A DNA stretch of 64,000 nt from Rhypophila decipiens (Eukaryota > Ascomycota > Sordariomycetes > Sordariales > Naviculisporaceae), in NCBI GenBank assembly GCA_033297075.1, contig MU858200.1, positions 1 through 64,000 of the forward strand, read 5' to 3'. Shown piece by piece: positions 1,099 to 46,086 of the stretch. Position 1 is the first letter of the stretch, and every line of letters starts with the position of its first letter. The position numbers and the translations under genes are program-made. The notes under the pieces were generated by a model, which saw nothing but the letters and a program-made list of their open reading frames with translations, was not told the DNA's origin and did no database searches.

Positions 1099-1340
1099 TT
1101 CCAGTCAGACCGCTTCTTGCCGAATTGGGGACAAAGTAAACATTGAAACCTGAAAAAATAGCAACGGCAGTTAGGCTCGTGCATCTTAGCTTGTCGCACT
1201 GTCTTAGCAAAGTAACAATCGCTATCGATATCAACAACCCACCAAAACGTACCATTCGCGACCCCCCTATTGCCCTATTTCGAATTATCGCGACCCAGCT
1301 GCGATGCGATATTCGCAGTCGCCTGAATAATATCCCGACC

Positions 1341-4300
1341 ATGGAGTCAACTTCTCTGATTGACCTCATGTCGTCGCCCGATCCGCTTACGGACGCCGCT
1401 CCGAGCTCTGTGATCCCCTCGTCGCGTCGCGTCACCCGAAGCCAGACCTCGCAGCGCTTCTACGCCATGAACCCTTCGCCGAGGAAGCAGACGTTCGAGC
1501 TGGATGTTGGGAACGATATCTCACCTCAAAAAATACGGGTCACGGTCGAGGCAGAGGATTTTGACCAACCGAACGTCAAACGCCGCTTATTCCAGTCGCC
1601 CACCCCTAAGAGGAATGTGAGGCGCAAATTGAATGCGACAACCACGACAGTACCCCTACGCGGCCTGACCGACGATGAGCGCGGCGCGCCTAGCGAGACG
1701 GCTACTCCCAGACGAGGACGACCGCGCAGATCAGGAACTCCCAGAAAGCCAGCCACACCGGCGACAGTTCGACCTCGACGACCTGCCACACCTGGTGGGA
1801 GGTTTGTACGGTCCAACACGGTCTCGTCCAGGGACGTTCTCCAATCAGACACCGACGCGGCAGAGAACCGGCAGACGCCGCGCCTTTCCAGCAATGTCAA
1901 GAGATTGCCGAGGCGCAAGACCATGACGCCCACGAAGGGCGATGACGTTCCATCATCATTACCACGAAAGAAAAGGGGACGCCCCAGGAAAGAGAGCATC
2001 CTCCCCTCCGATATAGCCGCGATGGCGGAGCAGGAAAGCACAGCAGACGGCGAGGTGGAGGACAATGCATCGGTCGCGCAAACCGAGGACATGGCTTCGG
2101 CTGCTGGAAACCGAGATGATGGGCCAGGAGCTTTCACCGACCTAGACGACGACATATGGCTTGCAACACTCTCCGATCAAGCAACACCTGTCGCGCGTCG
2201 ATGGCACGGAGGAGATGGGCCAATTCCGGAAAATGCCGAGCCAGACTTGCCCTTGCTTGAACCGGAACGAGAACCTGAACCAAGGCCGTCACAACACTCG
2301 GACGCCGATTACTCACAGCCAGAGGAATACATGGACTTTGGAGGAGGTATGGACTCTCATAGTGACGTCGAATCGGAACTGAGCGAGAAGAGTGCAGGTC
2401 AGGGAACGGCGCAAGACACAGCACAAGACACGGTGATGACCAATGAAGAGTTTACCATGATTTCCATTGGTTCTCTGCCGTCGATGCAACCAAACTCGAG
2501 CATGATGGCGGCCGGGCCGCCACAAGAGCTCGGAGAAGCCACTAGTCTGATTATTCACAGAACGTTAGAAGAACTCAGGCAAAGCCGGAACAAGGCAGCA
2601 CAACAGGATGTGATTACCGAAGAAACCCCTGCGGTCACGGCAGAATCGGCCGAAATGAGCTTTGTTCAGCAACCAGAAGACTCGCTGTTTGCGCAGCCCA
2701 AGTCCCCCGGACCTTGGATGATGAGAAGCCCGCGCAGGAACAAGGCCACACCTCTCGCGAAACAAGTAGCTGTCAAGAAGCTCCTCCAAGCAGATAGCAT
2801 CGATCCCTCCGCGCCGCCTCCACTCCTTGATGGCCAGGAAGCCCAGGACACATCCGGCTATGACGACTCCTTTTCCCAGATCCCCGAGGCAGTTCTCGAA
2901 GCCGCCACTCCCCGAAGACGGCGCCAGCCTCTGACCGAGGCGGAAGATGAGAGCAGGCCAACATATATCCAGCCGTCGATTGAACGGCCTTCAATTGTGA
3001 ATCACTCCAATCCCCAATCTGAGTCGAATAGGCTGTTGACCCCTGATGAGACACCGTCGATCCCGTCGGACGATGAAGGAGAGAAATCCCAACCGAGCGC
3101 CGTCAATTCCGCCCTAGACCCAGCCCCCGTTCCCGAAGTACGGTCATCCCCGCCTGATGACGGCCCAAGTCCCGATCGGAACCGCAATGAATTGTTTTCG
3201 CGCCTCTCGAGGACCCGCTCGACCGAAACTCCAACCGAGAAGCAGGCCAGCTTTCACTCCCCGGATCTCGGAGCACCCAACGGACAACAGCTTGGTCTCG
3301 CGCCCCCAGAACCACAACGGCGGCCGACCCTCTCCCCGATTGTACGAGCTGGCAGAGCGCTGCAGTTCATCACCTCAGACCCCCCTTCGCCGCCCAACCG
3401 AGACAGTGTCCTCCGAAGCCCCTTCCGGGGGTCCGTGGCCAAGTCTAGCCCGCCTGCCGAGTTGCCAGCCACGGCCAGGGCTACTGAATCACCACCACAA
3501 ACTCAAAACGAAGAATCGGCAAGACCCGCGGGACGATCCTGGCTTTCACCTTTTACTCATATTAAGGATCTTGTAGTTCAAGGTGCGCAGGCTCTCTCCC
3601 CTCGGCCTGCTTTGGTCTCTGGTATCCAAGATCCGTTTGGTCCTGTGGCCAACGCCTCAGCGAGACCTTCGTCCAGTCGCTCCATGTTTCGATTCCGAAG
3701 TGAACAGCCACAACCTCAACCACAAGCATTGTCTCGTGGCGGTGCAGATGAGGACGAGATGAGCTGGCAAGCTGAGAGTCCACCCCGGCCGTCATCGCAG
3801 GGCCGGCCTGGATCACCGGGTTCGAGTATACATGCTGCGCCAGGTACCTCACCAAGTGACCGACCTCATGCGGCAATGCAAAACAGGTATGAACAGCGGA
3901 TTTTGGCCGAACCCGAAAATGTGGACGAGATGGAAGAGCTGGACGAGATTGAAGACTCCCAGCCGGATCACGACCAGTATCAAGGAAATGTCTTGGATGT
4001 GGAGTCAGAGCCAGAATCAGAGCCGCGGCAGGTGGATCAGTATGAGGAAGAGGAGTTGGAAGACTATGAAGAAGATTTACTTGAGAATGAGTATGGGCGA
4101 GAGGAACTGGAAGTCGAAACAGAACAGGATCACCACGTCGAGGAGGAATCCGAGCAAGAGCAAGAGCAAGAGCACGAAATGGAACTGGAACTGGATCGCG
4201 GACCGGAGCCAGAGCCGGAACCGGAACCGGAACCGCATCAAACACGGGGACAAGCTCAAACAGAAGAGCAAGAGGAAGATGAAGATGAGGACATTTGGGC

Positions 4301-6599
4301 AATCGAGGCTCAGCGCCCTACACCTTTTACAAGCAAACAAAAGGCCCCTCCTCGAGAACCATATGTTTTCCCGCCACGAAGGAGCAAGCTTCCAAGTCCC
4401 TGGAGACAGAACAGCAAACGTCTGGTGTACAGCGACGAGCTACAGCAATTTTCCGATGAGAATATTGGCCCTCAGAGATCAGAGGCTGACGAGTTCAGTA
4501 TGCTGTCTCAGCAGAAAAGCCCGCCAAGACCAACTGCTCTCTTGAACCCCACGCCACATGCAGCCCCAGCTCCCAAGGCCGATCTCTCAGCCTTCTTCTC
4601 GTCGCCTGCGGTCCTTCCAGATGCCACCCAACCGGGGTTCGGATTGTTCAAAGCTCTGGGTGGGAAGCAATCTGTCAGGAAACAGGCGCCTCAACCAGCT
4701 CCCTTGAGGCAGCAAATACGGTCAACATTTCAACCGCCACCAGCTTTCGGAAACAGTCTTTTTCCGCAGTTGCCTCCAGAGGAGCCCGAAGCACGGCCCC
4801 AGCCCCAGACCCGGACGCAGACGCTGCCTTCTATCCCCCAAAAGGAATTCCACATTAATAGAGTCAATCGTGAAACCAGTATTCTGTCGTCGCCGAGAAG
4901 GGAACCCTCTCGAGAGGCAACGGTTTCGGAGCCAGCCCAATCACCTTCCTCTGAAATCCGGCCCCAGACCCGGACGCAAAAGCTGCCTTCTATCCCACAA
5001 AAGGAATTCCACATTGATAGAGTCAATCGTGAAACCAGTATTCTGTCATCACCGAGAAGGGAAGGCTCTCGAGAGGCAACGGGTTCGGAGCCAGCCCAAT
5101 CATCGTCCCCGCCCACACCACAAAGGCCTGTTGTACCCCAAAAGATGAACTTTACTCCCCGGTCTCGAAATGCCGAGAATACTCTGTTTAACCCGAAGGC
5201 GACGGCTCAAGCTCCTGTCGGCTCCAATTCACTTTTCGGGAGTGCCAAACAACGAGTGTCGTCCTTCTTCGCATCGACAGGTCCCGCCGCTGCTGCCCAC
5301 CAAGACGAAGACGACGACTATGATGAGGACATGGAAGAAGAAGACGATGATGATTCAAGAGCGACGAGCCCAGACCTGAGCTTCGAAATGCCGCCGAAAC
5401 TCAACCCTGCCCCTAATCGTGCCATGTCACCTACTAAATCATCCTTCCGCTCGCCCATGAAACCCAAGACGCCCGGCCGGGTAGTCGAGTTCACGAGCAG
5501 CACGCTTTCACCGCTCGCCCAAGCACAGGCTCGAGCCGAGCAGCGACGGGCAAGCGCTTCCCCCGAGAAAGAAGCAGGGCCAGCACCTCCATCCCGGCCA
5601 GCTCTCACGCGTTTCTCCGAGTCGCCGTCATCAACTAGCAGTAACAGTAATGGCAATAGGAGTCCGACGCGTGGTCCACCTCCTTCTTCTTCTTCTTACT
5701 CAAACGCAAAGCAAAAGGGGCAGGACAAAGAGAATAGATGGGGCGAAGAGGAAGAAGAAAATGTCGAGGAAGCGGTCCGGCTACCACGTCATCACCAGCC
5801 TCCATCGTTTAATACCCGGTCGTACCTCTCAAATTCCGCTAGTGGTAAACCGGGCCCATCCTTTCAATTTCTGCCAAAGCCTGCTCCTGCCGCCGCTGCT
5901 ACTCGCTCTCATCCGATTGTTACTACACACCAACTCCCCACGCCAAAACCATCGTCTTCAACAGCTAGCATAACCTCTCAAACTTCGAACAACACCAATA
6001 CCAACACCAATTTGCTGAAGATGAATTCCAACAATAGCCCCAAGAAGGCTCTCACTAGCAGCAATCTCGCCAACAAACCAAAACAACTCTCCACAGCCCA
6101 ATGGACCAGAGACCACTGGCTCCGCCTCGACGAGCTCCTCCAAGCCAGACGCAAGGGGATGCTCGCGTTCCAACTCACGGTGCGACAAGGTCCCACCGGT
6201 GGCTCTGCTCAAATCAACAGCACCGGAGGAGCAGGAAAATCCCATCGTCTACTAGGGAAACAAGTGACTACTGCTTCTGCTGCTGCTGCTGCTGGTGATG
6301 GCGAAGAAGAGAGTATGATCCTCGAGGCGTGGCATTTGGATATTGTCGACGCTTTTAGGAGCGAGGTTTTGCATGGCGGCGCTGAGGCAAGCACAAGTAG
6401 GAATACCGGTGGTGGTGGTAGTAGTAGTAGTCACCTGTGGACAGATGAAGTCCTTGCCAAGAGGTTATTTGCCTTGATGGTTGGGGAGGAGAGGAGAGCA
6501 GCCGGACGGGTGGATCGTGCTGCTAGGGCTAGAAGGGAGAGGCGACGGGAACGAGAACAGCAGCAGCAGCAGGAGGAAGAGGAGGTGAGGTGGTATTAG
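1341..6599 (+). CDS. Large AT-hook DNA-binding protein (about 1752 aa)
   Basis: A single uninterrupted frame of about 1752 codons. The first ATG at 1341 is preferred; the frame is open further upstream but has no earlier ATG. Two AT-hook motifs are visible, one with core GRPRR (around residue 125) and one with KKRGRPRKE (around residue 212), so binding to the minor groove of AT-rich DNA is likely. The rest is mostly disordered: Pro/Ser/Thr-rich, with a long acidic Glu/Asp stretch (about residues 860-1000) containing PEPEPEPEPE runs. A 53-residue block around LPSIPQKEFHI is duplicated in tandem (DNA 4802-4960 and 4961-5107). The only folded-looking part is near the C-terminus, around WTRDHWLRLDELLQARRKG, a motif I associate with fungal proteins named 'AT DNA binding protein'. 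A nuclear chromatin protein is inferred; the exact role is unknown. Confidence 0.85.
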   Translation: MESTSLIDLMSSPDPLTDAAPSSVIPSSRRVTRSQTSQRFYAMNPSPRKQTFELDVGNDISPQKIRVTVEAEDFDQPNVKRRLFQSPTPKRNVRRKLNATTTTVPLRGLTDDERGAPSETATPRRGRPRRSGTPRKPATPATVRPRRPATPGGRFVRSNTVSSRDVLQSDTDAAENRQTPRLSSNVKRLPRRKTMTPTKGDDVPSSLPRKKRGRPRKESILPSDIAAMAEQESTADGEVEDNASVAQTEDMASAAGNRDDGPGAFTDLDDDIWLATLSDQATPVARRWHGGDGPIPENAEPDLPLLEPEREPEPRPSQHSDADYSQPEEYMDFGGGMDSHSDVESELSEKSAGQGTAQDTAQDTVMTNEEFTMISIGSLPSMQPNSSMMAAGPPQELGEATSLIIHRTLEELRQSRNKAAQQDVITEETPAVTAESAEMSFVQQPEDSLFAQPKSPGPWMMRSPRRNKATPLAKQVAVKKLLQADSIDPSAPPPLLDGQEAQDTSGYDDSFSQIPEAVLEAATPRRRRQPLTEAEDESRPTYIQPSIERPSIVNHSNPQSESNRLLTPDETPSIPSDDEGEKSQPSAVNSALDPAPVPEVRSSPPDDGPSPDRNRNELFSRLSRTRSTETPTEKQASFHSPDLGAPNGQQLGLAPPEPQRRPTLSPIVRAGRALQFITSDPPSPPNRDSVLRSPFRGSVAKSSPPAELPATARATESPPQTQNEESARPAGRSWLSPFTHIKDLVVQGAQALSPRPALVSGIQDPFGPVANASARPSSSRSMFRFRSEQPQPQPQALSRGGADEDEMSWQAESPPRPSSQGRPGSPGSSIHAAPGTSPSDRPHAAMQNRYEQRILAEPENVDEMEELDEIEDSQPDHDQYQGNVLDVESEPESEPRQVDQYEEEELEDYEEDLLENEYGREELEVETEQDHHVEEESEQEQEQEHEMELELDRGPEPEPEPEPEPHQTRGQAQTEEQEEDEDEDIWAIEAQRPTPFTSKQKAPPREPYVFPPRRSKLPSPWRQNSKRLVYSDELQQFSDENIGPQRSEADEFSMLSQQKSPPRPTALLNPTPHAAPAPKADLSAFFSSPAVLPDATQPGFGLFKALGGKQSVRKQAPQPAPLRQQIRSTFQPPPAFGNSLFPQLPPEEPEARPQPQTRTQTLPSIPQKEFHINRVNRETSILSSPRREPSREATVSEPAQSPSSEIRPQTRTQKLPSIPQKEFHIDRVNRETSILSSPRREGSREATGSEPAQSSSPPTPQRPVVPQKMNFTPRSRNAENTLFNPKATAQAPVGSNSLFGSAKQRVSSFFASTGPAAAAHQDEDDDYDEDMEEEDDDDSRATSPDLSFEMPPKLNPAPNRAMSPTKSSFRSPMKPKTPGRVVEFTSSTLSPLAQAQARAEQRRASASPEKEAGPAPPSRPALTRFSESPSSTSSNSNGNRSPTRGPPPSSSSYSNAKQKGQDKENRWGEEEEENVEEAVRLPRHHQPPSFNTRSYLSNSASGKPGPSFQFLPKPAPAAAATRSHPIVTTHQLPTPKPSSSTASITSQTSNNTNTNTNLLKMNSNNSPKKALTSSNLANKPKQLSTAQWTRDHWLRLDELLQARRKGMLAFQLTVRQGPTGGSAQINSTGGAGKSHRLLGKQVTTASAAAAAGDGEEESMILEAWHLDIVDAFRSEVLHGGAEASTSRNTGGGGSSSSHLWTDEVLAKRLFALMVGEERRAAGRVDRAARARRERRREREQQQQQEEEEVRWY

Positions 6600-11885: not shown

Positions 11886-12882
11886 TTACTGATCCGACCT
11901 CTGGGTGGTGTCATTCTCGTCCTCGTCAACAGGCCTCACCCGAGGATCAAAAGGCACAACACCCCGATTCTCCCAAGCCCAATCCCATATCCCCTCAAAG
12001 TCGCGACACACATGCAAAACATCACTCCGGGGCTGAGCCGATTTGATCCCCTCGTTCCACTGAAAGGTGACTACGCTCGTGTCGGCCGCGCACATGATTG
12101 CCTCGCGGAGGACATTCACACAGTGGCTGATATGTTCTGTTCCATACGGGCCACGCTTGGGATGAAATTTCCAGTCGTCTACCAGACTTTGAGCGAGGTA
12201 ATACTCCTTGTCGAGAGCGATACGGATAGAGTTTAGGCAGTGCAGTTGGTGGAAGACTACTAGGTTCGCGGCGTAGTAGCCTGGGTCTGATTGTTTGGGG
12301 TAAGGGAGCGTTTTGTTGGGCAGACGAGAGGCAATGGATTCGGGAAGGCGGAGGTAGGAGACGTTGTAGTAGAGGCTCTTCCAGAGTTGGTCTAGGGGTT
12401 GAGTTGGGGGTGTGGCTTGGTAGGGCGTTTTGAGCGGATTGAAGCCGTAGGAGAATTTTTTTATTTGGTGGATATTTGTTAGGTAACTTAGGTGGGCTGG
12501 AACGGGGGCTGTTGTTTGCGTAGGGGGGTTAGAGTTGGGATGTTATGCTGGGACTTGGGCGACTGAGCATTGTTGAGGACTTACTGAATACAAGGTCGGT
12601 TGGGGAAGAGGCAAGGTTCCCAGACGAAGTTGTGTCGTGGTCGACAAGAGGTCCTTGTTTGAGGTAAAGGAGAAGAATCACGACTGAGAGAAGCAGATTG
12701 AGAGTGTAGGAGAAGATCAAGAATGGTGTGTATGACTTTTGTCCTCCCTGAAAAGAGCCACCGGTCTCGAGAGATGGTGATGCGGACACAGATGGCAAGA
12801 GGTGCTGGTCATCCTGGGCATCTTGTTTGTCCAAAAGAGGTGTGTAAGTTGAACGGGGCTTCTAGAAGTTGAGAGCCAACAT
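11886..12882 (-). CDS. UstYa-family oxidase (DUF3328), start codon region broken or non-standard
   Basis: Two exons are clear: up to 12585 and 12508-11886, with donor GTAAGT and acceptor AACAG. They encode about 290 residues counted from 12834. Just after a short polar N-terminus is one membrane helix (FLIFSYTLNLLLSVVILLLYL). The two signature motifs of the family follow in order: HQLHC (12237-12251) and HISHC (12120-12134), which bind the catalytic metal in UstYa-type proteins. These enzymes oxidatively cyclise ribosomal peptides such as ustiloxin and also act in other secondary-metabolite pathways. The frame contains no ATG downstream of 12882. Between the ATG at 12880-12882 and the body lies an in-frame TAG (12862-12864). 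Either the gene is a nonsense-mutated allele, the base is a sequencing error, or an unusual start is used. The divergent neighbour is a repeat peptide precursor, which fits the RiPP role. Confidence 0.85.
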
Positions 12883-12963
12883 CTTGTAGGCTGAGTCAAA
12901 GAGTTTGGGACGGCGAGGTAGATACTGGGTCCTTCGGATCATCTGTTAGTATTACTCGCTCTC

Positions 12964-12970
12964 CTTTATA
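12964..12970 (-). promoter_or_regulatory. TATA box of the UstYa-type gene
   Basis: TATAAAG on the minus strand. Transcription would start about 30 bp downstream, near 12940, which places the ATG at 12880-12882 some 60 bases into the mRNA and makes it the most likely original start codon. Confidence 0.45.
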
Positions 12971-14235
12971 TCAGGCTCGCTTGAAGTAGGTTCCTGTCAT
13001 GAGACTTTGCAAATCGTCTGCTCAGTATTTCTCTGTATTCATCCTTGTCCTTTGGTTCTCAGACAATCACAAGGCCCCGACCTTATCTCCCATATTATAA
13101 CCAATGCACTTAGTTGCACGCCTCCTCTGCCAATTTGAGCAAACATCCAGATAACCAGCTCCAACATGAATAGTGTGACCTAAATGAGTCCCACGAAGAG
13201 CGCTACTGTGCTGAGCCGCACTCTAGCCAAAATTAATAGAATCAGCAAATTCTGAAGTAAATAACTCTACTAGTCTCGGTCTATGGTGGTACGATACCAA
13301 CGCAATGACCTTGTGTAAGAGGTATGCGTCACACCAACGCAGCCCGGTAGATTGGGTCACAACTATGAATAAACAAGAGGAACAAACATAACTCACTGCA
13401 GGGAATATTTTACCTAGAAGAGTATCGGAAATCACGTCTTGTCCTACCCCATGAAACTATGCAGATATTGCTTTACTAGCCCTTCTTGTCTAGTTTTTCC
13501 TGTCTTACCACCTTCAGCTCCTCTTCTTCGTCTGGTGCGGTCCGAGACCCTGCAGATGAAGGAATGAGAACTTGGAATCTCGACATCATGATCCTACGTG
13601 ACAAGACTCACTGCATGTTCTGCTGGTTGAATAACGAGGCCATCACATGTGGTCCTCACTCCCAAAAATGAGACTACATGTCCTTCGCCCCCACCCTCAA
13701 CCAGATCCCTCCTATGGCATGTAGCTTCCTCTGACTTGACGTTATCCTTGAGAAGATAGCGATGACGGACTATATACGGACTAGTATGCATATAGAAACT
13801 GTCACGAGTACATTTTCAAGGATGCTGTGCCTCAAGCCGGTTGGACATCCAGCTTGTTGGATCCAAGTATCTAGGACCAAGCAGTAAAAATACCAGATAT
13901 TATCTAGGATTTGAGACTCTACTCGACTCAAGTAACGGCATACTAGATTTGGATACAACTTTCTGTGTCTCCGCCGCTCATACATGCAGTCTTCTCCATG
14001 AAGTGATTGAAGTGATTCTGCCTAGAGCCCTAGACCCGACTCGGACCTTTCAAAGAGAACCGTGCAGCGCTGGGGTCATCCGGGGCTTCTTTGGATCCAG
14101 ATAATGATCTTGTATGTAAGAGCCTGGACTAATCTGCAGTTCAAGCAAATTTCAATATAGAACAGAGGACTCTGCCCCAATATCTCGCGACCCCTCTACC
14201 AAGGGGTCCATAACGAAAATTCAAAGGCTGATTTC
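12971..14235. other. Intergenic between oxidase and precursor genes, no gene seen
   Basis: This 1.3-kb spacer was read on both strands for further HxxHC motifs, Kex proteases or methyltransferase-like frames, and none was found. It should contain the regulatory sequences of both divergent genes. Confidence 0.5.
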
Positions 14236-14241
14236 ATGTTG

Positions 14242-14247
14242 TATAAG
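14242..14247 (+). promoter_or_regulatory. TATA box of the peptide precursor gene
   Basis: TATAAG about 154 bp upstream of the ATG at 14396. This gives an expected transcript start near 14272 and a 5' leader of about 125 bases. A strong core promoter fits a small secreted product. Confidence 0.45.
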
Positions 14248-14395
14248 TACTCACTTGATTCCGCCAGCTGCCCATCTCTCCTCCTCTTACTCCCACATCT
14301 TCAACATTCTCGCTCATTCGAAGAGCATTCTCTACCGAAACATAGGCAGAAAACACTTCAGTTCATCACAAAACCAGAAACAACTCAGACCGTTT

Positions 14396-14872
14396 ATGAG
14401 AATGAATCTCCTCAGCCTCGTAACCATTCTCGCTCTCACAGCTGGCTTCGAGGTCCATGCTAGGGTTGTCAATCTTCGAGCAGCTAAGTAAGTCAGAGTC
14501 TTCCTTATATTCTTATATCTTGTATTCATTATTCTGCCTAGATCTCACACTCTAACCCCACCCACTTATCATTGGCATTCTGTTTTCTGCTCACTCGCCC
14601 TTTCAAAGCACGCCCTACCAACCTGCTAGTACGAAAAACCAGAGTAACGAATCCATGAACTCTACAGCCCCCAGAGGATTCATCAACTCGAGCAGCGACA
14701 AGGCTCACCCACAACCTCAGCACCTCCTGAACCCTCGATCACCGGCAGCGGTGATGACTCCAACTTTATCAACTTTCTGGACAAGAGACAGGGATCGCCG
14801 ACTACTTTGGCACCTCAGCCCTCTACCACCGTTGGTGGTGATGACTCAAACTTTATCAATTTTCTTGACTAA
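14396..14872 (+). CDS. Putative RiPP (dikaritin-like) precursor peptide, 98 aa
   Basis: Two exons, 14396-14487 (donor GTAAGT) and 14668-14872 (acceptor CTACAG), give 98 residues. Exon 1 encodes a secretion signal (MNLLSLVTILALTAGFEVHA). Exon 2 encodes two tandem units: 14699-14788 (30 aa) and 14789-14869 (27 aa). Each starts QGSPTT and ends with the identical block GDDSNFINFLD; the first is followed by the Kex2 site KR, the second by the stop. Signal peptide, repeated cores and KR processing are the layout of UstA/PhomA-type precursors, and a UstYa-type gene lies divergently 1.5 kb away. Unlike ustiloxin (YAIG) or phomopsin cores, this one has no tyrosine and carries two phenylalanines. An alternative acceptor at 14677 would change only two to three residues. 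It could instead be a repeat secreted peptide that is not cyclised. Confidence 0.72.
14699..14869 (+). repeat. Two tandem precursor units with identical core
   Basis: Unit 1 is 90 bp and unit 2 is 81 bp. Across the 11 core codons there are three third-position differences (TCC/TCA, AAC/AAT, CTG/CTT) and no amino-acid change. The linker between QGSPTT and the core differs by several replacements and a three-residue length difference. Confidence 0.8.
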
Positions 14873-35000: not shown

Positions 35001-35544
35001 GGCGCCTAATATACAGGCACCACTACTCTCATATACAGGCACTAGTCCAATTTGACTTTTTGACTTCCTAGACCAGAGGTATTCATTCAAGCCAGTACAA
35101 GGCATTTATTCGAGCTAATTAAGGCATTTATTCGAGCTAGTTAAGGTATTTATTCTAGTGTAGACTATCTAGTTAAGGCCTCTATTTTAGCTAGTTAAGC
35201 TATTTATTCGAGCTAGTTAAGGTATTTATTCTAGTCTAGACTATCTAGTTAAGGCCTTTATTCTAGCTAGTTAAGGCATTTATTCGAGCTAGTTAAAGTA
35301 TTTATTCTAGTCTAGACTATCTAGTTAAGGCCTTTATTCTAGCTAGTTAAGATATTTATTCGAGCTAGTTAAAGTATTTATTCTAGTCTAGACTATCTAG
35401 TTAAGGCCTCTATTCTAGCTAGTCAAGCTATTTATTCTAGTCTAGACTATCTAGTTAAGGGATCTATTCAAGCTAGTTAAGGTATTTATTCCAACAAGAC
35501 TAGTGCCTGTATATGAGAGGACTGGTGCCTGTATATTAGGGGCC
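35001..35544. mobile_element. MITE with about 45-bp terminal inverted repeats and internal minisatellite, 544 bp
   Basis: The left end begins GGCGCCTAATATACAGGCAC and the right end, read in reverse complement, begins GGCCCCTAATATACAGGCAC. Similarity continues for about 45 bp and includes a second copy of ATATACAGGCAC, so each end has two subterminal repeats. The sequence TAATATAT occurs directly outside both ends (34993-35000 and 35545-35552), a likely 8-bp target duplication as made by hAT-type transposases. There is no coding capacity. Confidence 0.75.
35104..35490. repeat. 76-bp minisatellite inside the MITE
   Basis: The word gtatttattctag recurs at 35222, 35298 and 35374, a period of 76 bp. 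Each unit is made of related 20-34 bp subunits built from tttattc, gagctagttaagg and the palindrome agtctagact. About four to five units are present, the outer ones degenerate. Confidence 0.9.
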
Positions 35545-38455: not shown

Positions 38456-40237
38456 ATGAACGGTAACGACCACCTGAACGTTATCAGCAGCCAGCAAGAG
38501 CCTTTACTTGTCGCAGACTCTACTTCGCGAGGAGATGACTTGGACAGGGGGGAACTTGGCAATGGCGACGGTGCTGGCGATGTCCGGTCAGCCCCGGGAA
38601 AGCTGGGAAACGAATCGGCCAGCTTATTTATTTGGATGCTTACCTTTTCCGCCGGCATAAGCGGCCTTCTATTTGGATGTGAGTAGCTCCCTGATCTTGA
38701 GATTGGCGAATGAAACCCTCAACATATGCTGACTTGTCTGGCCACTTAAGACGATACTGGTGTGATATCCGCCACCTTGGTATCGATCGGCACCGGCCTG
38801 TCGGACAGGACCCTCACATCGTTGGACAAATCCATCATCACATCATGCACCTCACTTTTTGCCCTGCTAGTATCACCTTCGGCGTCGGTACTCGCAGATA
38901 GTCTCGGTCGGAAGCGGGTGATCCTTGCCGCCGATGTGCTGTTTGTCGTGGGCGCTCTCATTCAAGCCCTGAGTACTACCATCTTCGCCATGGTGATCGG
39001 ACGATCCATCGTTGGTGCTGCCGTCGGCGCTGCGAGCTTTGTTGTTCCTTTATATATTGCCGAGCTCAGTCCCGCGGCTCATCGCGGCAGGCTGATCACG
39101 ATGAATATTGTCTTCATCACGTTGGGACAGGTCATTGCCTATATTGTAGGTTGGGTCTTTGGGTCCTACGCGAGCCAGGAGACCGGCTGGAGGTGGATGG
39201 TTGGCCTTGGTGCTCTCCCCGCGGCCGTACAGATGGTGCTGTTGCTGTTCATGCCTGAGAGCCCCAGATGGCTTGTCAAGGCAGGGCGGTCCGGCGAGGC
39301 TAAAGCTGTCATTCAGAAGGTCTCTGGTGGGAACCAGCTTGGCACCTCGTCAAGGCTAGTCGATGCTACACTCAAAACCATTGAAATCGAGGTGAGAGAA
39401 GAGGAAGCAGCCAGGAGACTGAGCAGTAGGCGGACAGGTCGCAACTCTCCTGCCTGGGTGGAAGTTATGCGCGAATTGTTCGCGGTTCGAAGGAACAGGC
39501 GTGCGCTTGCCATTGCTTGCCTTCTCCAAGGTCTGCAGCAACTATGTGGCTTTGTAAGTTTCTTCCCTTTCTGTTTTCTGTTCACCCACAATGGCTGACT
39601 CCCCGGTGTCCGCGGTACGCTTTAGAACTCTCTCATGTACTTTTCAGCTACGATTTTTACCCTTGTCGGGTTCCCGATACCTACACTCACGTCTCTTGTT
39701 GTTGCGGTCACAAACTTCGCTTTCACCCTGATAGCCCTTGGCCTGATTGACCGGGTTGGGAGAAGACGAATCCTTCTCTGGTCGATTCCCTTCATGATCG
39801 GGGGTCTACTGCTCGCTGCCTACGGGTTTTCGTTTGTCCAGCTGTCCTCGGATTCGACGAATGAAGCGGGAGTAGGAACTGCCCAGCCGGCCCAGGGCGC
39901 AGCATTTATCATTCTGGTCAGCATCATGATATATGTTGCTGGTTACGCGATCGGCCTGGGCAACGTGCCCTGGATGCAGAGCGAGCTGTTTTCTCTTGGA
40001 GTACGCTCAGTGGGGAGCGGTATCTCAACGGCTACCAACTGGGGCGCCAATTTCGTGATCGGACTGACGTTCCTGCTCCTGATGGACGTCCTCACTCCGA
40101 CATGGACTTTTGTGTTGTATGCTATCATATGTGGCATCGGGTATGGCTTGATCTGGCGGGTCTACCCGGAGACTGCAGGGTTGACTCTAGAAGATGCGGC
40201 GACGCTTCTAGAAGATGACAACTGGGGCGTTCGCTAA
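38456..40237 (+). CDS. MFS myo-inositol/sugar transporter, 545 aa
   Basis: Three exons: 38456-38678, 38751-39553 and 39626-40237, total 1638 bases. Sugar-porter signatures are present in order: YDTGVISATL at the first exon junction, DSLGRKRV in the first cytoplasmic loop, PESPRWLV before the central loop, LQGLQQLCGFN in helix 7, DRVGRRR in loop 8-9 and PETAGLTLED after helix 12. Twelve membrane helices are expected. The helix-10 region GNVPWMQSELFSLGVRSVGS followed by TNWGAN is typical of fungal myo-inositol/proton symporters (Itr1/Itr2, Fst1-like) rather than of hexose carriers. The protein imports its substrate across the plasma membrane. A transposon block begins 220 bp after the stop codon. 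Confidence 0.93.
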
Positions 40238-42243
40238 AGGGTGACATTTTCTTTCCTTCTATAGTCTATAGTACACTTGTATTTTCCGATGATATTTTTT
40301 GCACCATTCATACCTGACTCGGCTATTGAAGGCTTTTCTCGGAATCGATGGCGAGGCTAAAAAAATTTATTACAGGAAGTTTTCTCTGATCTCGAAACCG
40401 GAAGCGGAAAGAGCTGTGAAGTTTGGGCATTAATCCGTCTTTATAGCGTCTATATTGCCACACCTTTATGTTTGTACTAATATAGTAACAGATCAAATAC
40501 ACCGCCTATAAAATCGTCCGTACACACTACTACTACTACTACTACTACTACCACTACCACTACTAACTATCAAGACTTATTAGACTATACTAATACTAGT
40601 ATAAGCTATAGGCGTATAGGAAAGTAAGATGTAGAAATCCCTTATAGTAATAGGGACTTCCTCCCTTTTAATAATAAATAACTAAGCCCTTAGGTAAATA
40701 TATATATATCTACTCTTTAATATATAATATATTCTCTTCTACTCTTTAATAAACTTTAGTTCTTTTAGTACTTTTAGTTAAAAGATAGTTAAGTAGCTAA
40801 TTATTAATCTTAATCTATATTAAGATAAAATTATATAATAAAACTATATTAAGGTTTTATATACTAAAATACTTATTTAGTTATAAGAAAAAGATATTAT
40901 TATATTTAAATAAATACTTTAGAACTACTTTAATAAATAAAAGAAACTAGGATAAGAGGATTATACTATAGTTATTTAAATATAAGGAGTGGGTTATTAA
41001 ATAATTAGAAAAAGGTCTAACTTATAAAGTAATTATCAAAAATCTAGAAAAAGACTTAGACTTTTAAATATTATAAAGAACTTTTACTAGAATTCTAAAC
41101 TAATATAGTCTTTTTTAACTAAAGATCCTTAATAAAGAGTATATACTTAAAGTAGTAGAGTTATACTTCTTTATATATAGTTATAATAATAAAAGTATTT
41201 ATTAAAAACTTTAAAGGTATAAAATAGTTATATTTTTATAAATACTTTAAGACTTCTAACTCTATAATAGATTAAAATAATAATATTATTTAGCTAAAGA
41301 AAGAAATAATATTTTTTATAAAGTGATAGTTTTTATAGAAGTTAATTTCTAGTAAATGTTAGTTATTTTAGACTTTAAAAGAAATCTACTCTATTAATAT
41401 ATTTAGTTTTATAATAGTATTTTGATTAAGAAGAATAGACTTTATAACTAGTATAAAGAAAAGTTCCTAAATAAAGTTAAGTATTAGTAAGTTAGTAACT
41501 AGACTTATTAAAGGAATTTTAAAGTCCTTAGTCTAAACTTCTTATAGTATTTTAATAAATATAAGAAGTTGAAAATATATAACTTTTAAGTCTATATTTA
41601 TATTAATATCTATTTTAAATATATTATTTAAGTATATATTAGTCTATTACTAATAATAGTAATAAATATATTAAAATAGTATTTTTATATAGTTTTAAAT
41701 AATAGAATATAACTATTCTTTATAAGATCTAATTATAGAAAAGAAATAATACTCTAAGTAACTACTTAAATAAGTTTAGTTAATAGTACTAAAATAGTAG
41801 TAGAGATTGTAGATAATAAAAATAACTATTATATTTATTATTAAAGGCTTAATATTTAGTCTTACCATATATATAATACTAGTATAGAGATTATCAGGAT
41901 TAAATCCTAGTTTTAATATTTATATAGTACAGTATTAAATAAATAAATTATAAGTTATTTATTCTGTATAAATATTAGAAGAAGAGAAGGAGTAGTCTAC
42001 TAGTTCTTTCTATTAAACTTATTTTAAAGACCTTATAGATTTTGGTTATTTTATAAAAGACTATTTATTTAATTAAATTACTATATATACTATATATATT
42101 AATATAATTAGAATAGAACTTACTATATTTACTAGTTTCTAGAATAGTTATAAAATCTACTTTTAGTTTAGTTAATTATATATTAATACTAATATCTCTT
42201 AAAACTTTTATAAGACTAATAAAGTTAAGAATTAAAGAGTTAA

Positions 42244-42364
42244 TGTCACGATATGTATATAACCCTTGATTTCAAGTCGGCGTTCGACTTGAAATTCTAC
42301 ATCCTTTTGAAGAAACGGGGTCCGTAGCCTAGTGGTAGGGTTCTAGACTAGTGGATTCGTCACA
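42244..42364 (+). repeat. Left LTR of the TRIM
   Basis: 121 bp. Contains TATATAA at 42256-42262, then an inverted repeat (TTTCAAGTCG/CGACTTGAAA with a 5-base loop) and an A-box-like tRNA motif TAGCCTAGTGG at 42325-42335. Confidence 0.85.
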
Positions 42365-42536
42365 ATTTCAAGTCAAACGGCCACGGTTCGAGCCCCTGAG
42401 TTGGAAAATGATGTGTTCTTTTCGGTTGTTCCTATACATACGGATGTGACCTGATCCCGCCAGACCCCCGCACTAGTTGCTCGCTAGCCCACGAAGGGCT
42501 AGAGTTCGGGGACGAACTCTGGATTGAAACGGGGGA

Positions 42537-42657
42537 TGTCACGATATGTATATAACCCTTGATTTCAAGTCGGCGTTCGACTTGAAATTCTACATCCTTT
42601 TGAAGAAAGGGGGTCCGTAGCCTAGTGGTAGGGTTCTAGACTAGTGGATTCGTCACA
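42537..42657 (+). repeat. Right LTR of the TRIM
   Basis: 121 bp, one difference from the left LTR (in the G-run before TCCGTAG). It ends CGTCACA, directly followed by the target duplication GTTAA. Confidence 0.85.
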
Positions 42658-42830
42658 GTTAATATTAAACTTAATTTATAAAACGTAACTCTTCTTTATA
42701 AGCTATATAAACCTTTAAAGGATATTAAAATTAATAAGTTTATAAATTAGTAAACTAGAAGCTAATATATAGGAAAAACAACTAAGTTAGATTTTAACTC
42801 TTATTTATTACAAACTTTAGAAACTATTAT

Positions 42831-43111
42831 TGTGACGGGCTGGGCCCTGTGAGGGCCTCGGCAACCCTCGGCCGTGGCACCGAGAATGGTGGGGCTCTGC
42901 CCCACCAGCGACCCTTGATGAAGCTATTCCCACCCTGTGCGTCGAAGTCTCCAGAACCTTCTATCCCTCTCTAATCGAACTGACACCATCATGTATATAG
43001 GATGGGCGAAGTCCATCAGACCTCTTTTCTCGTCTCTTCTTTCTCCTTCAAGTTTCGCGTTTTCGTTGTGAACGCTTAGCTAGTTGCAATACACTACCTT
43101 AGCACATTACA
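42831..43111 (+). mobile_element. Solo LTR, 281 bp, not affected by RIP
   Basis: Starts TGTGACGGGCTGGGCCC and ends TTAGCACATTACA, flanked by the perfect 5-bp duplication ATTAT (42826-42830 and 43112-43116). Base composition is normal, in sharp contrast to the AT-rich DNA on both sides. A TATA-like gtatatagg lies around 42995. It differs in sequence from the TRIM LTRs, so it belongs to another LTR family whose full-length copy is not in the window. Confidence 0.85.
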
Positions 43112-43839
43112 ATTATTATCTTTACTTTAAAACTTATAAATAAATATATAAGATTATAAAAGAATATATTAAAAGTAATTAAGTACTACTACTCTTTATT
43201 ATCTAGTTACTAGTTAAGAAAGTAGAATATTATATGAGTATTAAGTTCTTTATTTTATTTTTTATATCTTAAATATCTTTTCCAATATTAATTTAATTTA
43301 AAAAGAGCTTCTTTAAAGAAATTATACTAGTTTTAGTTATTAAGCTAAATGGCTTAAAAATGATCTATTACTATAAGAAATAAGGAATAAAATAGATAAG
43401 AATAATATTAAAAGTAGTTAGAGAGATATATATAAGTAAAGACTATATTAAATAAAGAATATTTAGATTATTTAAGGATATGAAATATTAGTATTAAATT
43501 AAAATAGACTTTAGAGATTTAATTATTTTATTAAGACTATAAACTAATAACGTTACTAGTTTTAAAGTATGTATTAAAGTAATTAATATAATATTAACTA
43601 ACTAGTAAATATTAAGTCTTATTAGCTCTTTATTCTTAAGATAGGGCTTAGAATCGTTAATAATAATTACTAATAACTACTACTATTAAGAAATTTAGTA
43701 ATAAAATATAGAGGAAATACTAAGAAAGAATCGTAAGCTATATTTATTTTACTAATTTAGCCCTTTCTATAGCTAATAATTAAAATAGTATAAATATCTT
43801 AATAGCTAGTAATTAAAACTATATATATATCCTAGTAAA

Positions 43840-44084
43840 AGTGACGGCAAGTGGCTGGCGGCTGGCCGGCTCGGCAATGTGGGGCTTATCACGTCATGGC
43901 TTATCGATTAACCCACTTACCCTACCACCACTTTCTGCCGTATTCACCGCCTTCGGTACGTACTACAACAACGCGCGATCTTCGCGTTGCTTGATTCTTT
44001 CCCCTTTCTTCTTCAACTTAGAATAACTACAATACAGTAGGGCTATTAGCAGCTTTGTCTCTTATTTGCCTGCTCGCCGTGACT
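43840..44084. mobile_element. Short insertion with AGTGACGGC ends, 245 bp
   Basis: Begins AGTGACGGCAAG and ends CTCGCCGTGACT, imperfect inverted termini, flanked by the 5-bp duplication GTAAA (43835-43839 and 44085-44089). Normal base composition inside an AT-rich host. A short open frame lies within it but is not coding-like. Orientation unknown. Confidence 0.7.
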
Positions 44085-44510
44085 GTAAATATATCTTTTA
44101 AACTATATAGTTATTAATATTAAAGAATAATACTAGTATAATAGTTAAAGCTAATTAATATAAGAAATAAGAGAAATAAGCTAAGTTAAAAGTAGATAGT
44201 AGTCTAGTTTCTACTTAGTTAATAAGCTCTTTAATTACTTAGAAAATAAGAGAAATAGATTAAGTTAAGAGTAAATAGTATTCTAGCTCCTACTTAGTTA
44301 GTAAGTCCTTTAACTACTAGAGAGTCTTAATAGTAATCTTTTTAAAGCTAATATAATTCATATCTGCTAAGGAGTTTTAATAGTAATCTTTTTAAAACTA
44401 ATATAATTCCTATATACTAAAATAATAAAAACCTACTTTAAATGTACTTCTTTTTAAACTAACTAACCTAATTATTAAAACTACCTACTAGTCCTTATAA
44501 AGGTAATACT

Positions 44511-44663
44511 TGTGACGATTTGGGAATCTAGAACCACACCACTAGGTCAAACCTCCTTAAAAGGGATGCCAAATTCTAAGCTGCAAGCTAGCCTTAGAAT
44601 TGTGTGTTATATAGCAGTTTCAATAGGGCACTATCGCTTGTGTTATCACGGCTCACCATGACA
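44511..44663 (-). mobile_element. Solo LTR-like element related to the TRIM, 153 bp
   Basis: On the minus strand it starts TGTCATGG and ends AAATCGTCACA, flanked by the 5-bp duplication ATACT (44506-44510 and 44664-44668). It has the same order of parts as the TRIM LTR with different sequence: TATATAA, an inverted repeat (AATTCTAAG/CTTAGAATT) whose second arm lies about 33 bp after the TATA box, then a tRNA-like CCTAGTGGTGTGGTTCTAGA and CGTCACA. Confidence 0.78.
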
Positions 44664-44886
44664 ATACTTAAACTTAGCTAAAGCTAAAGAATAAATAGAA
44701 ACTTAAGAGTAAGGATAAGGATAAGAATACTATTAAGAAGCCTATTCCTACTATTATTCTAATGAATATTACTACTAATCTACTAGTTTAAGCCTACCCT
44801 AAATACTATTAACGATTTAAATATAGATATATAAAATAGAGGTAGTAGTATAAGTATAATAGTTATAGTCTATAAGAGAGTCTAGT

Positions 44887-45110
44887 TGTCACGATATGTA
44901 TATAACACATCCGTATGTATAGGAACAACCGAAAAAAACACATCATTTTCCAACTCACGGGCTCGAACCGTGGCCGTTTGACTTGAAATTGTGACGAATC
45001 CACTAGTCTAGAACCCTACCATTAGGCTACAGACCCCCTTTCTTCAAAAGGATATAGAATTTCAAGTCGAACGCCGACTTGAAATCAAGGGTTATATACA
45101 TATCGTGATA
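44887..45110 (-). mobile_element. TRIM-related element with inverted LTR termini, 224 bp
   Basis: On the minus strand this is a TRIM-type LTR and the start of its interior, but it ends with the first 20 bases of the LTR in inverted orientation, giving terminal inverted repeats (TGTCACGATATGTATATAAC, one mismatch). A 5-bp duplication CTAGT flanks it (44882-44886 and 45111-45115), so the inverted structure itself was integrated. Confidence 0.8.
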
Positions 45111-45149
45111 CTAGTAGATAGTATAATTATGGTAGACTAAGTATATAAG

Positions 45150-45278
45150 AGTAATGGCGGTGTGCTGAATGAGTATATAACCATTGAATTGCAGAAGGTT
45201 CTGATAACCTCTGTAATTTGAGCTCCTTTTTAGGAACGGTTTGGCCGAGTGGTATGGTTCTTGGAGCTCGCCGTCACT
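45150..45278 (+). mobile_element. Short LTR-like element, AGT-ACT ends, 129 bp
   Basis: Starts AGTAATGGCGG and ends CGCCGTCACT, flanked by the 5-bp duplication ATAAG (45145-45149 and 45279-45283). Inside are TATATAAC, an inverted repeat (AATTGCAGA.. / ..CTGTAATT) and a tRNA-like GGCCGAGTGGTATGGTTCTTGG, the same layout as the TRIM LTR. Confidence 0.7.
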
Positions 45279-45320
45279 ATAAGAGAGCTAGTATTTATCT
45301 ATTATATAGAATATATTTAT

Positions 45321-45483
45321 TGTAACGCCAGTGACATACTGTGAGGATCGTATAGAGGAACAACCACCCTATACACCCTCATACGTACTATACATACCAT
45401 TTACTTGATTGGATCTTCCAATCAAGTCTAGTTGCTCTTTTGGGCTATGTTACGTAGTGGTGTGGTATGTCACGATCGTTACA
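45321..45483 (+). mobile_element. LTR-like element, 163 bp, no clear duplication
   Basis: Starts TGTAACGCCAGTGACATAC and ends GTATGTCACGATCGTTACA, so the two ends are also inverted copies of each other (about 16 of 19 bases). An 11-bp stem (ACTTGATTGGA/TCCAATCAAGT) lies after a TATACAT sequence. About 80 bp of normal-composition DNA follow (45484-45567) and could be part of an interior. No target duplication found. Confidence 0.6.
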
Positions 45484-45596
45484 TCCACCAGACCAACGGT
45501 GTTGGCCTGCTTCCTGCGGTGTTCGCATGCCTAGCTTACAGCGTATAAGCTACATGCCTGGCATTACTTTAACATATTACTATATATTTTTCTAGA

Positions 45597-45739
45597 TGTG
45601 ACGATTGTATGCAGAACAACCACTGTATACGTCGTCAGACAAACTATACATACCAATACTAGTAGCGGTTCTTCCGTTCTAGTATCGTGCTCTTTTGAGG
45701 GCTTGTGGCACAATGGTTTGGTATGTCGCTGTCGTTACA
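45597..45739 (+). mobile_element. LTR-like element related to 45321-45483, 143 bp
   Basis: Starts TGTGACGATTGTATG and ends CTGTCGTTACA. It shares GAACAACCAC and ACTATACATACC with the previous element and again has a stem (ATACTAG/CTAGTAT) after the TATA-like site. Flanking bases CTAGA and ATAGA match at four of five positions. Confidence 0.6.
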
Positions 45740-46086
45740 ATAGAGAACTAGGCTAATTCTATATTAAATAAGAATAAGTTAGGACTTAGAAGAAATACCT
45801 AATATAAATATACTTATAATATATAAGTTAATTAACTATATAAACTTTCTTAACTTTATTAGCTTAATACTATAGTTTTCTACTCTTATAGAGTAAATAT
45901 AAGTATTTCTAGTATTATAAACTTATTAATAAAGCTATATATAGTTAAAGCAAGCTAGTTATTAGTAGTCTAGATAATATTAATAATGTTGATATTTAAT
46001 AGTAGTGGTGGTAGTGGTGTATATAGACGATTTTATAGGCGGTGTATTTGAATTATTACTACATTAGCACAAACGTAAGGGTGTGG

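What the first reader, a model, noticed from the sequence alone, without database searches (positions are those of the whole stretch)
11886..14872. Candidate two-gene RiPP locus with a core unlike the dikaritin cores I know
A small secreted precursor with tandem units (each ending GDDSNFINFLD, one followed by a KR Kex2 site) faces a UstYa-family gene that carries both HxxHC motifs. This is the minimal set known from ustiloxin, phomopsin, asperipin and epichloecyclin pathways. Those I recall have a tyrosine in the core; this one has none and offers two Phe, two Asn, one Ser and three Asp as possible cross-link sites. No Kex protease, methyltransferase or other tailoring gene lies nearby.
Basis: partly seen in the sequence, partly recalled or inferred. 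Interest (0 to 1): 0.88.

Follow-up and report, generated by a model that had tools for sequence, protein, structure and literature searches.

The report
Tyrosine-free fungal repeat peptide, broken partner enzyme
A fungus, probably a dung-dwelling Rhypophila, carries a small gene for two repeated secreted peptides beside a gene of the family that ties such peptides into rings, but here the ring-making gene has an early stop, so this looks like one more member of a known kind that may be switched off.

Summary
A 98-aa precursor (exons 14396-14487, 14668-14872) holds two units, both ending GDDSNFINFLD, parted by KR; a 96-aa annotated Rhypophila decipiens protein has identical units and reads straight across the same exon junction. 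Between the two units, QGSPTT and GDDSNFINFLD differ by 9 silent and no amino-acid changes, so they look selected. A divergent UstYa gene with both HxxHC motifs starts 1.5 kb away. The ATG that lines up with a relative's start is followed by an in-frame TAG at codon 7, and no convincing intron removes it. A Tyr-free core is not exceptional: about a third of surveyed repeat sequences near UstYa genes lack Tyr, victorin is reported as cross-linked through Phe, and two other repeat precursors near UstYa genes in this genome lack it. Best reading: a new, narrowly distributed member of the dikaritin-like class, its enzyme probably lost in this isolate. The product is undetermined; a linear, pyroglutamate-capped 27-28-mer is a serious rival.

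The parts
14396..14487 (+). Precursor exon 1: signal-like MRMNLLSLVTILALTAGFEVHA and start of pro-region; the Met at codon 3 matches the annotated start in R. decipiens
   Evidence: signal peptide judged by eye, no predictor run
14488..14667 (+). Intron of the precursor gene, GTAAGT...CTACAG, 180 nt
   Evidence: P0001 continues across the same junction (protein level only)
14668..14872 (+). Precursor exon 2 with both units and stop
   Evidence: (only match in the 45.7 Mb genome)
14699..14782 (+). Unit 1 QGSPTTSAPPEPSITGSGDDSNFINFLD (28 aa); conserved end 14750-14782
14783..14788 (+). KR, Kex2-type site between units (a weaker QR precedes unit 1 at 14693-14698)
   Evidence: cleavage inferred
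14789..14869 (+). Unit 2 QGSPTTLAPQPSTTVGGDDSNFINFLD (27 aa), ends at the stop codon; conserved end 14837-14869
12862..12882 (-). Putative original UstYa start: ATG (12882-12880), five more codons, then in-frame TAG as codon 7 (12864-12862)
12585..12861 (-). UstYa frame after the TAG: N-terminal tail and hydrophobic (membrane-anchor-like) segment
12509..12584 (-). UstYa intron, GTAAGT...CAACAG with a CTAAC branch-like site, 76 nt
11886..12508 (-). UstYa exon 2 with HQLHC (12251-12237), HISHC (12134-12120) and stop
   Evidence: (PF11807, E 1.2e-38)
12883..14395 (.). Divergent intergenic region; TATA-like sites at 14242 (+) and 12970 (-)
   Evidence: consensus match only

Best explanation
This is a small dikaritin-like locus in a Rhypophila-like fungus (Sordariales). 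The precursor enters the secretory pathway, Kex2 cuts after KR and probably after QR, and a Kex1-type carboxypeptidase trims KR; this would release two peptides of 28 and 27 residues that share QGSPTT at the front and GDDSNFINFLD at the end. In lineages with an intact partner, the membrane-anchored UstYa oxidase would oxidise or cross-link the C-terminal block, most plausibly through a Phe ring of (S)NFINFLD. In the assembly studied here the UstYa frame has an early stop, so the peptide is probably left unmodified or the pathway is newly dead. Shown: the sequence features of both genes, the silent-only changes in the two blocks, the UstYa domain, the stop. Inferred: organism, secretion, cleavage, pairing, oxidation, loss of activity.
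For: Precursor kept in an annotated R. decipiens protein with identical units. 9 silent and 0 amino-acid differences in the 17 codons of the two blocks, against 5 amino-acid differences in the 11-column middle (blocks chosen after looking). UstYa domain E 1.2e-38 with both motifs. The part of the genome within 2 kb of any of the 67 UstYa match places is 0.43%. Same divergent layout, intron after the signal-like start, last repeat ending at the stop codon and Tyr-free repeats at C208. Published enrichment of UstYa genes next to such precursors. In P0003 and in the window the shared KQ are residues 19-20 counted from the ATG, with TAG as the window's seventh codon.
Against: The TAG speaks against a working pathway in this isolate. 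The surroundings of the PSN 640 UstYa orthologue could not be read. No precursor relative outside R. decipiens was found. No UstYa named from R. decipiens was among the 9 hits at E <= 1e-10 (the cluster P0002 stands for two members whose sources are not shown), so pairing is not shown in a second species. QGSPTT is as conserved as the supposed core, which fits a long linear peptide as well. At the C208 comparison locus the UstYa match itself contains stops that may be introns and was not modelled in full. No expression or mass data.
Confidence: 0.58

Rival explanations
1. The precursor makes linear secreted peptides (28 and 27 aa, N-terminal Gln turned to pyroglutamate), and the neighbouring UstYa gene is unrelated or a relic. 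The peptide acts as a signal, surface or antimicrobial peptide without rings.
For: Both ends of the unit are conserved, including QGSPTT right after the Kex2 site. Linear, pyroglutamated peptides from Kex2 repeat proteins were detected in Coprinopsis cinerea (passages of PMC9769878). UstYa frame interrupted. No peptidase that would cut out a short core among the 29 scanned ORFs.
Against: UstYa proximity is unlikely by chance (0.43% of the genome lies within 2 kb), though several repeat precursors per genome raise that to a few per cent. The rest of the UstYa frame is open and conserved, so the loss looks recent.
Confidence: 0.27
2. The UstYa gene is intact and the TAG is an assembly error, or is passed by an unseen intron or a non-AUG start; the pathway is live.
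For: After the TAG 299 codons are open with both motifs. Unusual starts exist in fungi (recalled).
Against: 117 single-intron combinations (ATGs up to 13.9 kb, introns 40-400 nt) would bypass the TAG; the best scores 5.33 on a simple donor/acceptor scale, against 7.33 for the real intron. Between the TAG and YTPLL there is no ATG. A DNA search of the genome returned the same letters, but from the same assembly.
Confidence: 0.12
3. The repeat is a chance duplication in a non-coding or unimportant ORF.
For: Only two copies. Four other ORFs of the window show exact repeats from plain DNA duplication.
Against: Codon pattern, same junction and identical units in R. decipiens, 0 of 100 resamples.
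Confidence: 0.03

Closest known systems
Asperipin-2a pathway (aprA, aprY, aprT, aprR; Aspergillus flavus)
   Same: Repeat precursor with one UstYa-type oxidase, few genes (passages of PMC6514808, and PMC7329392)
   Different: Core FYYTGY is Tyr-rich; the cluster has a transporter and a reductase gene. Here two genes, two repeats, no Tyr, enzyme frame interrupted
Victorin pathway (Cochliobolus victoriae)
   Same: Multi-core precursor and a cross-link not made through Tyr: C-terminal Phe side chain to an internal Leu (passage of PMC9233826)
   Different: Cluster-encoded peptidases and chlorination. Core sequence recalled as GLKLAF; the victorin paper PMC7533671 is not held
Ustiloxin and phomopsin (dikaritins)
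   Same: Signal peptide, Kex2 repeats, UstYa proteins. Phomopsin core recalled as YVIPID before KR (string not found in the paper searched); FINFLD before KR is of like length and also ends in Asp, a resemblance from memory only
   Different: They have 2 and 5 UstYa-type genes and need a tyrosinase, and use a Tyr ether; here one interrupted UstYa frame and no tyrosinase in the scanned ORFs
[quoted passage not shown]
   Same: Precursor anatomy, N-terminal Gln after the Kex2 site
   Different: The paper read in passages does not mention UstYa or DUF3328 in its main text

Membership tests
Kex2-processed repeat proteins (KEPs) | N-terminal signal peptide | tested here: inconclusive
   Hydrophobic stretch with V-H-A before the likely cut, by eye; no predictor available
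Kex2-processed repeat proteins (KEPs) | Near-identical units parted by dibasic sites | tested here: met
   Two units, KR between
Kex2-processed repeat proteins (KEPs) | At least 3 repeats, the cut-off of the 1461-genome survey | tested here: not met
   Two repeats only; cut-off in PMC7329392 methods. It is a search criterion rather than biology, and means that survey would have passed it over
Dikaritin-type RiPP | UstYa/DUF3328 gene near the precursor | tested here: met
   starts 1514 bp apart, divergent
Dikaritin-type RiPP | Intact UstYa reading frame | tested here: not met
   In-frame TAG at codon 7, no convincing intron; assembly error not excluded
Dikaritin-type RiPP | Two HxxHC motifs in the UstYa protein | tested here: met
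   HQLHC and HISHC; their His and Cys invariant or at least 90% conserved in 22 rows
Dikaritin-type RiPP | Tyr in the core | tested here: not met
   No Tyr in either unit; not required by the literature: 65.6% of repeats near DUF3328 genes contain Tyr
Dikaritin-type RiPP | Oxidised or cyclised peptide product | not testable with these tools
   Needs LC-MS
Dikaritin-type RiPP (ustiloxin/phomopsin subclass) | Tyrosinase, methyltransferase, peptidase genes nearby | tested here: not met
   None among 29 scanned ORFs of the window; 49 of the 76 ORFs kept were not scanned

The most novel reading that the evidence does not exclude
A two-gene RiPP system in which a UstYa oxidase cross-links a Tyr- and Trp-free C-terminal block (SNFINFLD) through a Phe ring, with Asn, Asp or Leu as partner, and QGSPTT serving as the recognition sequence; it is kept intact in sibling species and caught at the moment of enzyme loss in this one, leaving the unmodified peptide still under selection.
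Probability: 0.15. Interest if true: 0.6.

Novelty: new member of a known kind. Interest (0 to 1): 0.36.

Why it matters
The large survey read here required three or more repeats, so two-repeat precursors like this one are passed over; this locus argues for lowering that cut-off when a UstYa gene lies next door. If strains or species of Rhypophila differ in the UstYa frame, the natural loss would give a ready with/without comparison of what UstYa does to a Tyr-free peptide.

Tried and rejected

Papers: PMC7329392 abstract and sections 6 (part 1), 7 and 13; PMC6339444, PMC12048977, PMC9233826, PMC10880069, PMC6514808, PMC12734299, PMC10512285, PMC9769878 and PMC12186524 passages only; PMC7533671 and PMC12143957 not held, seen only as reference entries.

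Full report
What is there. The precursor gene lies at 14396-14872 on the plus strand with one 180-nt intron (14488-14667, GTAAGT...CTACAG). It encodes 98 aa: a hydrophobic signal-like start, a short pro-region, then QGSPTTSAPPEPSITGSGDDSNFINFLD, KR, and QGSPTTLAPQPSTTVGGDDSNFINFLD, ending at the stop codon. The only relative found in a collection of about 5.8 billion proteins, with a search that needs shared 5-residue words, is a 96-aa hypothetical protein of Rhypophila decipiens (V8F06_002520). It starts at the third codon, has two substitutions in the leader part, continues across the same exon junction, and has every residue of both units and the KR unchanged. A second search that admitted longer proteins found none. 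The precursor has no paralogue in the window's own genome, 45.7 Mb in 408 contigs. The organism is therefore taken to be a Rhypophila or near relative; Rhypophila genomes of dung isolates are listed at about 46 to 48 Mb (passages of PMC12734299). This is an inference.

Is the repeat more than chance? Comparing the two units codon by codon, QGSPTT differs at all six codons and always silently; GDDSNFINFLD differs at three of eleven codons, always silently; the 11-column middle has five amino-acid differences, one silent difference, four identical codons and one gap. Counting sites, the two blocks have 9 synonymous differences in 11.5 sites and none in 39.5 non-synonymous sites (Fisher p 1.8e-8, but the blocks were chosen after looking). 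Over the whole unit it is 14 in 20.2 against 5 in 60.8. None of 100 Markov resamples of the window held an exact 8-residue repeat in a frame. Repeats do arise by plain DNA duplication: the real window has four other ORFs with one, three of them frames of the 159-bp duplication at 4802-5102 and one in the tandem array near 35.4 kb. The codon pattern, not the repeat as such, is the argument.

The partner. On the minus strand a UstYa domain (PF11807, E 1.2e-38) follows a first exon with a hydrophobic stretch, split by a 76-nt GTAAGT...CAACAG intron; HQLHC and HISHC lie in the second exon. Their His and Cys are among the best conserved columns of a 22-row alignment that includes 14 paralogues of the same genome. 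The nearest other protein, from Naviculisporaceae sp. PSN 640, is 65% identical over 95% of the query (P0003; P0002 in that list is the window's own fragment); the best-scoring paralogue in the same genome is 37% identical.

The point that changes the picture. P0003 starts MSSFSSFKHHAAYESLVEKQ. The window reads, in the matching frame and at the same distance from KQ, ATG, five further codons, TAG, then KPRSTYTPLLDKQ. The ATG has A at minus 3. In 7 of the 8 relatives aligned the Tyr of the YxPLL-like motif sits 5 to 12 residues after the annotated Met (P0007 has a long extension). In the window there is no ATG between the TAG and that motif, and the first in-frame Met after the TAG is residue 231 of the spliced frame, past both HxxHC motifs (residues 179 and 218). 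I enumerated single introns of 40-400 nt that would bypass the TAG and keep the frame, with ATGs up to 13.9 kb: 117 combinations, the best scoring 5.33 on a simple donor/acceptor scale where the real intron scores 7.33; the leaders shown do not resemble the start of P0003 by eye. The likely reading is a recent loss of the enzyme in this isolate. An assembly error cannot be excluded, because only the assembly is at hand.

Are the two genes a pair? The UstYa family has 67 match places in this genome at E <= 0.001, 66 of them over Pfam's cut-off and some of them exons of one gene. They fall in 38 groups when 2-kb margins are joined, and 0.43% of the genome lies within 2 kb of one. With a handful of repeat precursors per genome (the survey average in Ascomycota is 5.25), a chance neighbour is a matter of a few per cent. 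I scanned the 37 loci in hand (128,950 bases, overlapping; fetched for 30 of the 67 places plus follow-ups) for repeats with dibasic sites and found two further precursors. At C208, a 186-aa protein with eight IWLW copies, seven of them followed by KK and the last ending at the stop, is divergent from its UstYa with 887 bp between starts and an intron after the signal-like peptide, the same layout as here; that UstYa match contains stops that may be introns and was not modelled in full. At C59, a protein with eight GPPPPSW-like copies parted mostly by KR or KREA-type sites ends about 1.3 kb before a UstYa match on the same strand. Neither has Tyr in its repeats. Five other hits of the scan (L013, and other frames of L015) looked non-coding and were dropped.

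How unusual is a Tyr-free core? In the 1461-genome survey, 65.6% of repeat sequences of KEPs accompanied by DUF3328 genes contain Tyr, so about a third do not (PMC7329392 section 7). Victorin is described as cyclised between the C-terminal Phe side chain and an internal Leu (PMC9233826 passage). DUF3328 proteins are also linked to hydroxylation, chlorination, transacylation and desaturation (PMC10880069 passage). So the core is a new sequence, not a new kind. The survey demanded three or more repeats, which would have excluded this precursor.

Mechanism, with steps marked. Shown by sequence: repeat precursor, KR between units, UstYa domain, the stop. Inferred: entry to the secretory pathway; Kex2 cut after KR and, less surely, after QR; Kex1-type trimming; release of 28- and 27-residue peptides; in lineages with an intact enzyme, oxidation or cross-linking of the SNFINFLD end. 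Against a short ring and for a longer linear product: QGSPTT, directly after the cut, is as conserved as the end block, and N-terminal Gln becoming pyroglutamate is documented for Coprinopsis cinerea peptides of this precursor type (PMC9769878 passages). Also, no peptidase gene was seen among the 29 scanned ORFs. QGSPTT could equally be an enzyme recognition stretch. I put about 0.58 on a dikaritin-like origin with the enzyme probably lost here, 0.27 on a linear peptide with an unrelated UstYa, 0.12 on an intact pathway with a misleading TAG.

Verdict. A real precursor that looks selected and is so far known from one other genome, and a real UstYa gene, most likely a pair; a new member of a known kind; the functional claim for this isolate is weakened by the stop.

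Noticed in passing
L015 / L038 (G000:C208:13660 onward): A second repeat precursor beside a UstYa gene: 186 aa, eight IWLW copies, seven followed by KK, divergent from its UstYa with 887 bp between starts; Trp-rich, no Tyr.
   Followed up: partly
L039 1210-1662 / L019 (G000:C59:116609-117061): Repeat precursor with KREAEA and GPPPPSWKR-like copies, pheromone-like in its Ste13-type EA dipeptides, ending about 1.3 kb before a UstYa match.
   Followed up: partly
G000: 67 UstYa match places in one 45.7 Mb genome, several in groups (C3, C306, C251, C167), some with in-frame stops that may be introns or decay.
   Followed up: no
window 40200-46000: AT-rich block (26-32% GC against about 50%) with tandem repeats at 43.8-44.4 kb; looks like a decayed repeat island.
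   Followed up: no
window 35099-35491: Tandem array, 76-bp period, about 5 copies of a CTAGTTAAGG-type unit.
   Followed up: no
window 1140-6596: 1819-aa open frame without Pfam match, carrying a 159-bp tandem duplication at 4802-5102.
   Followed up: no
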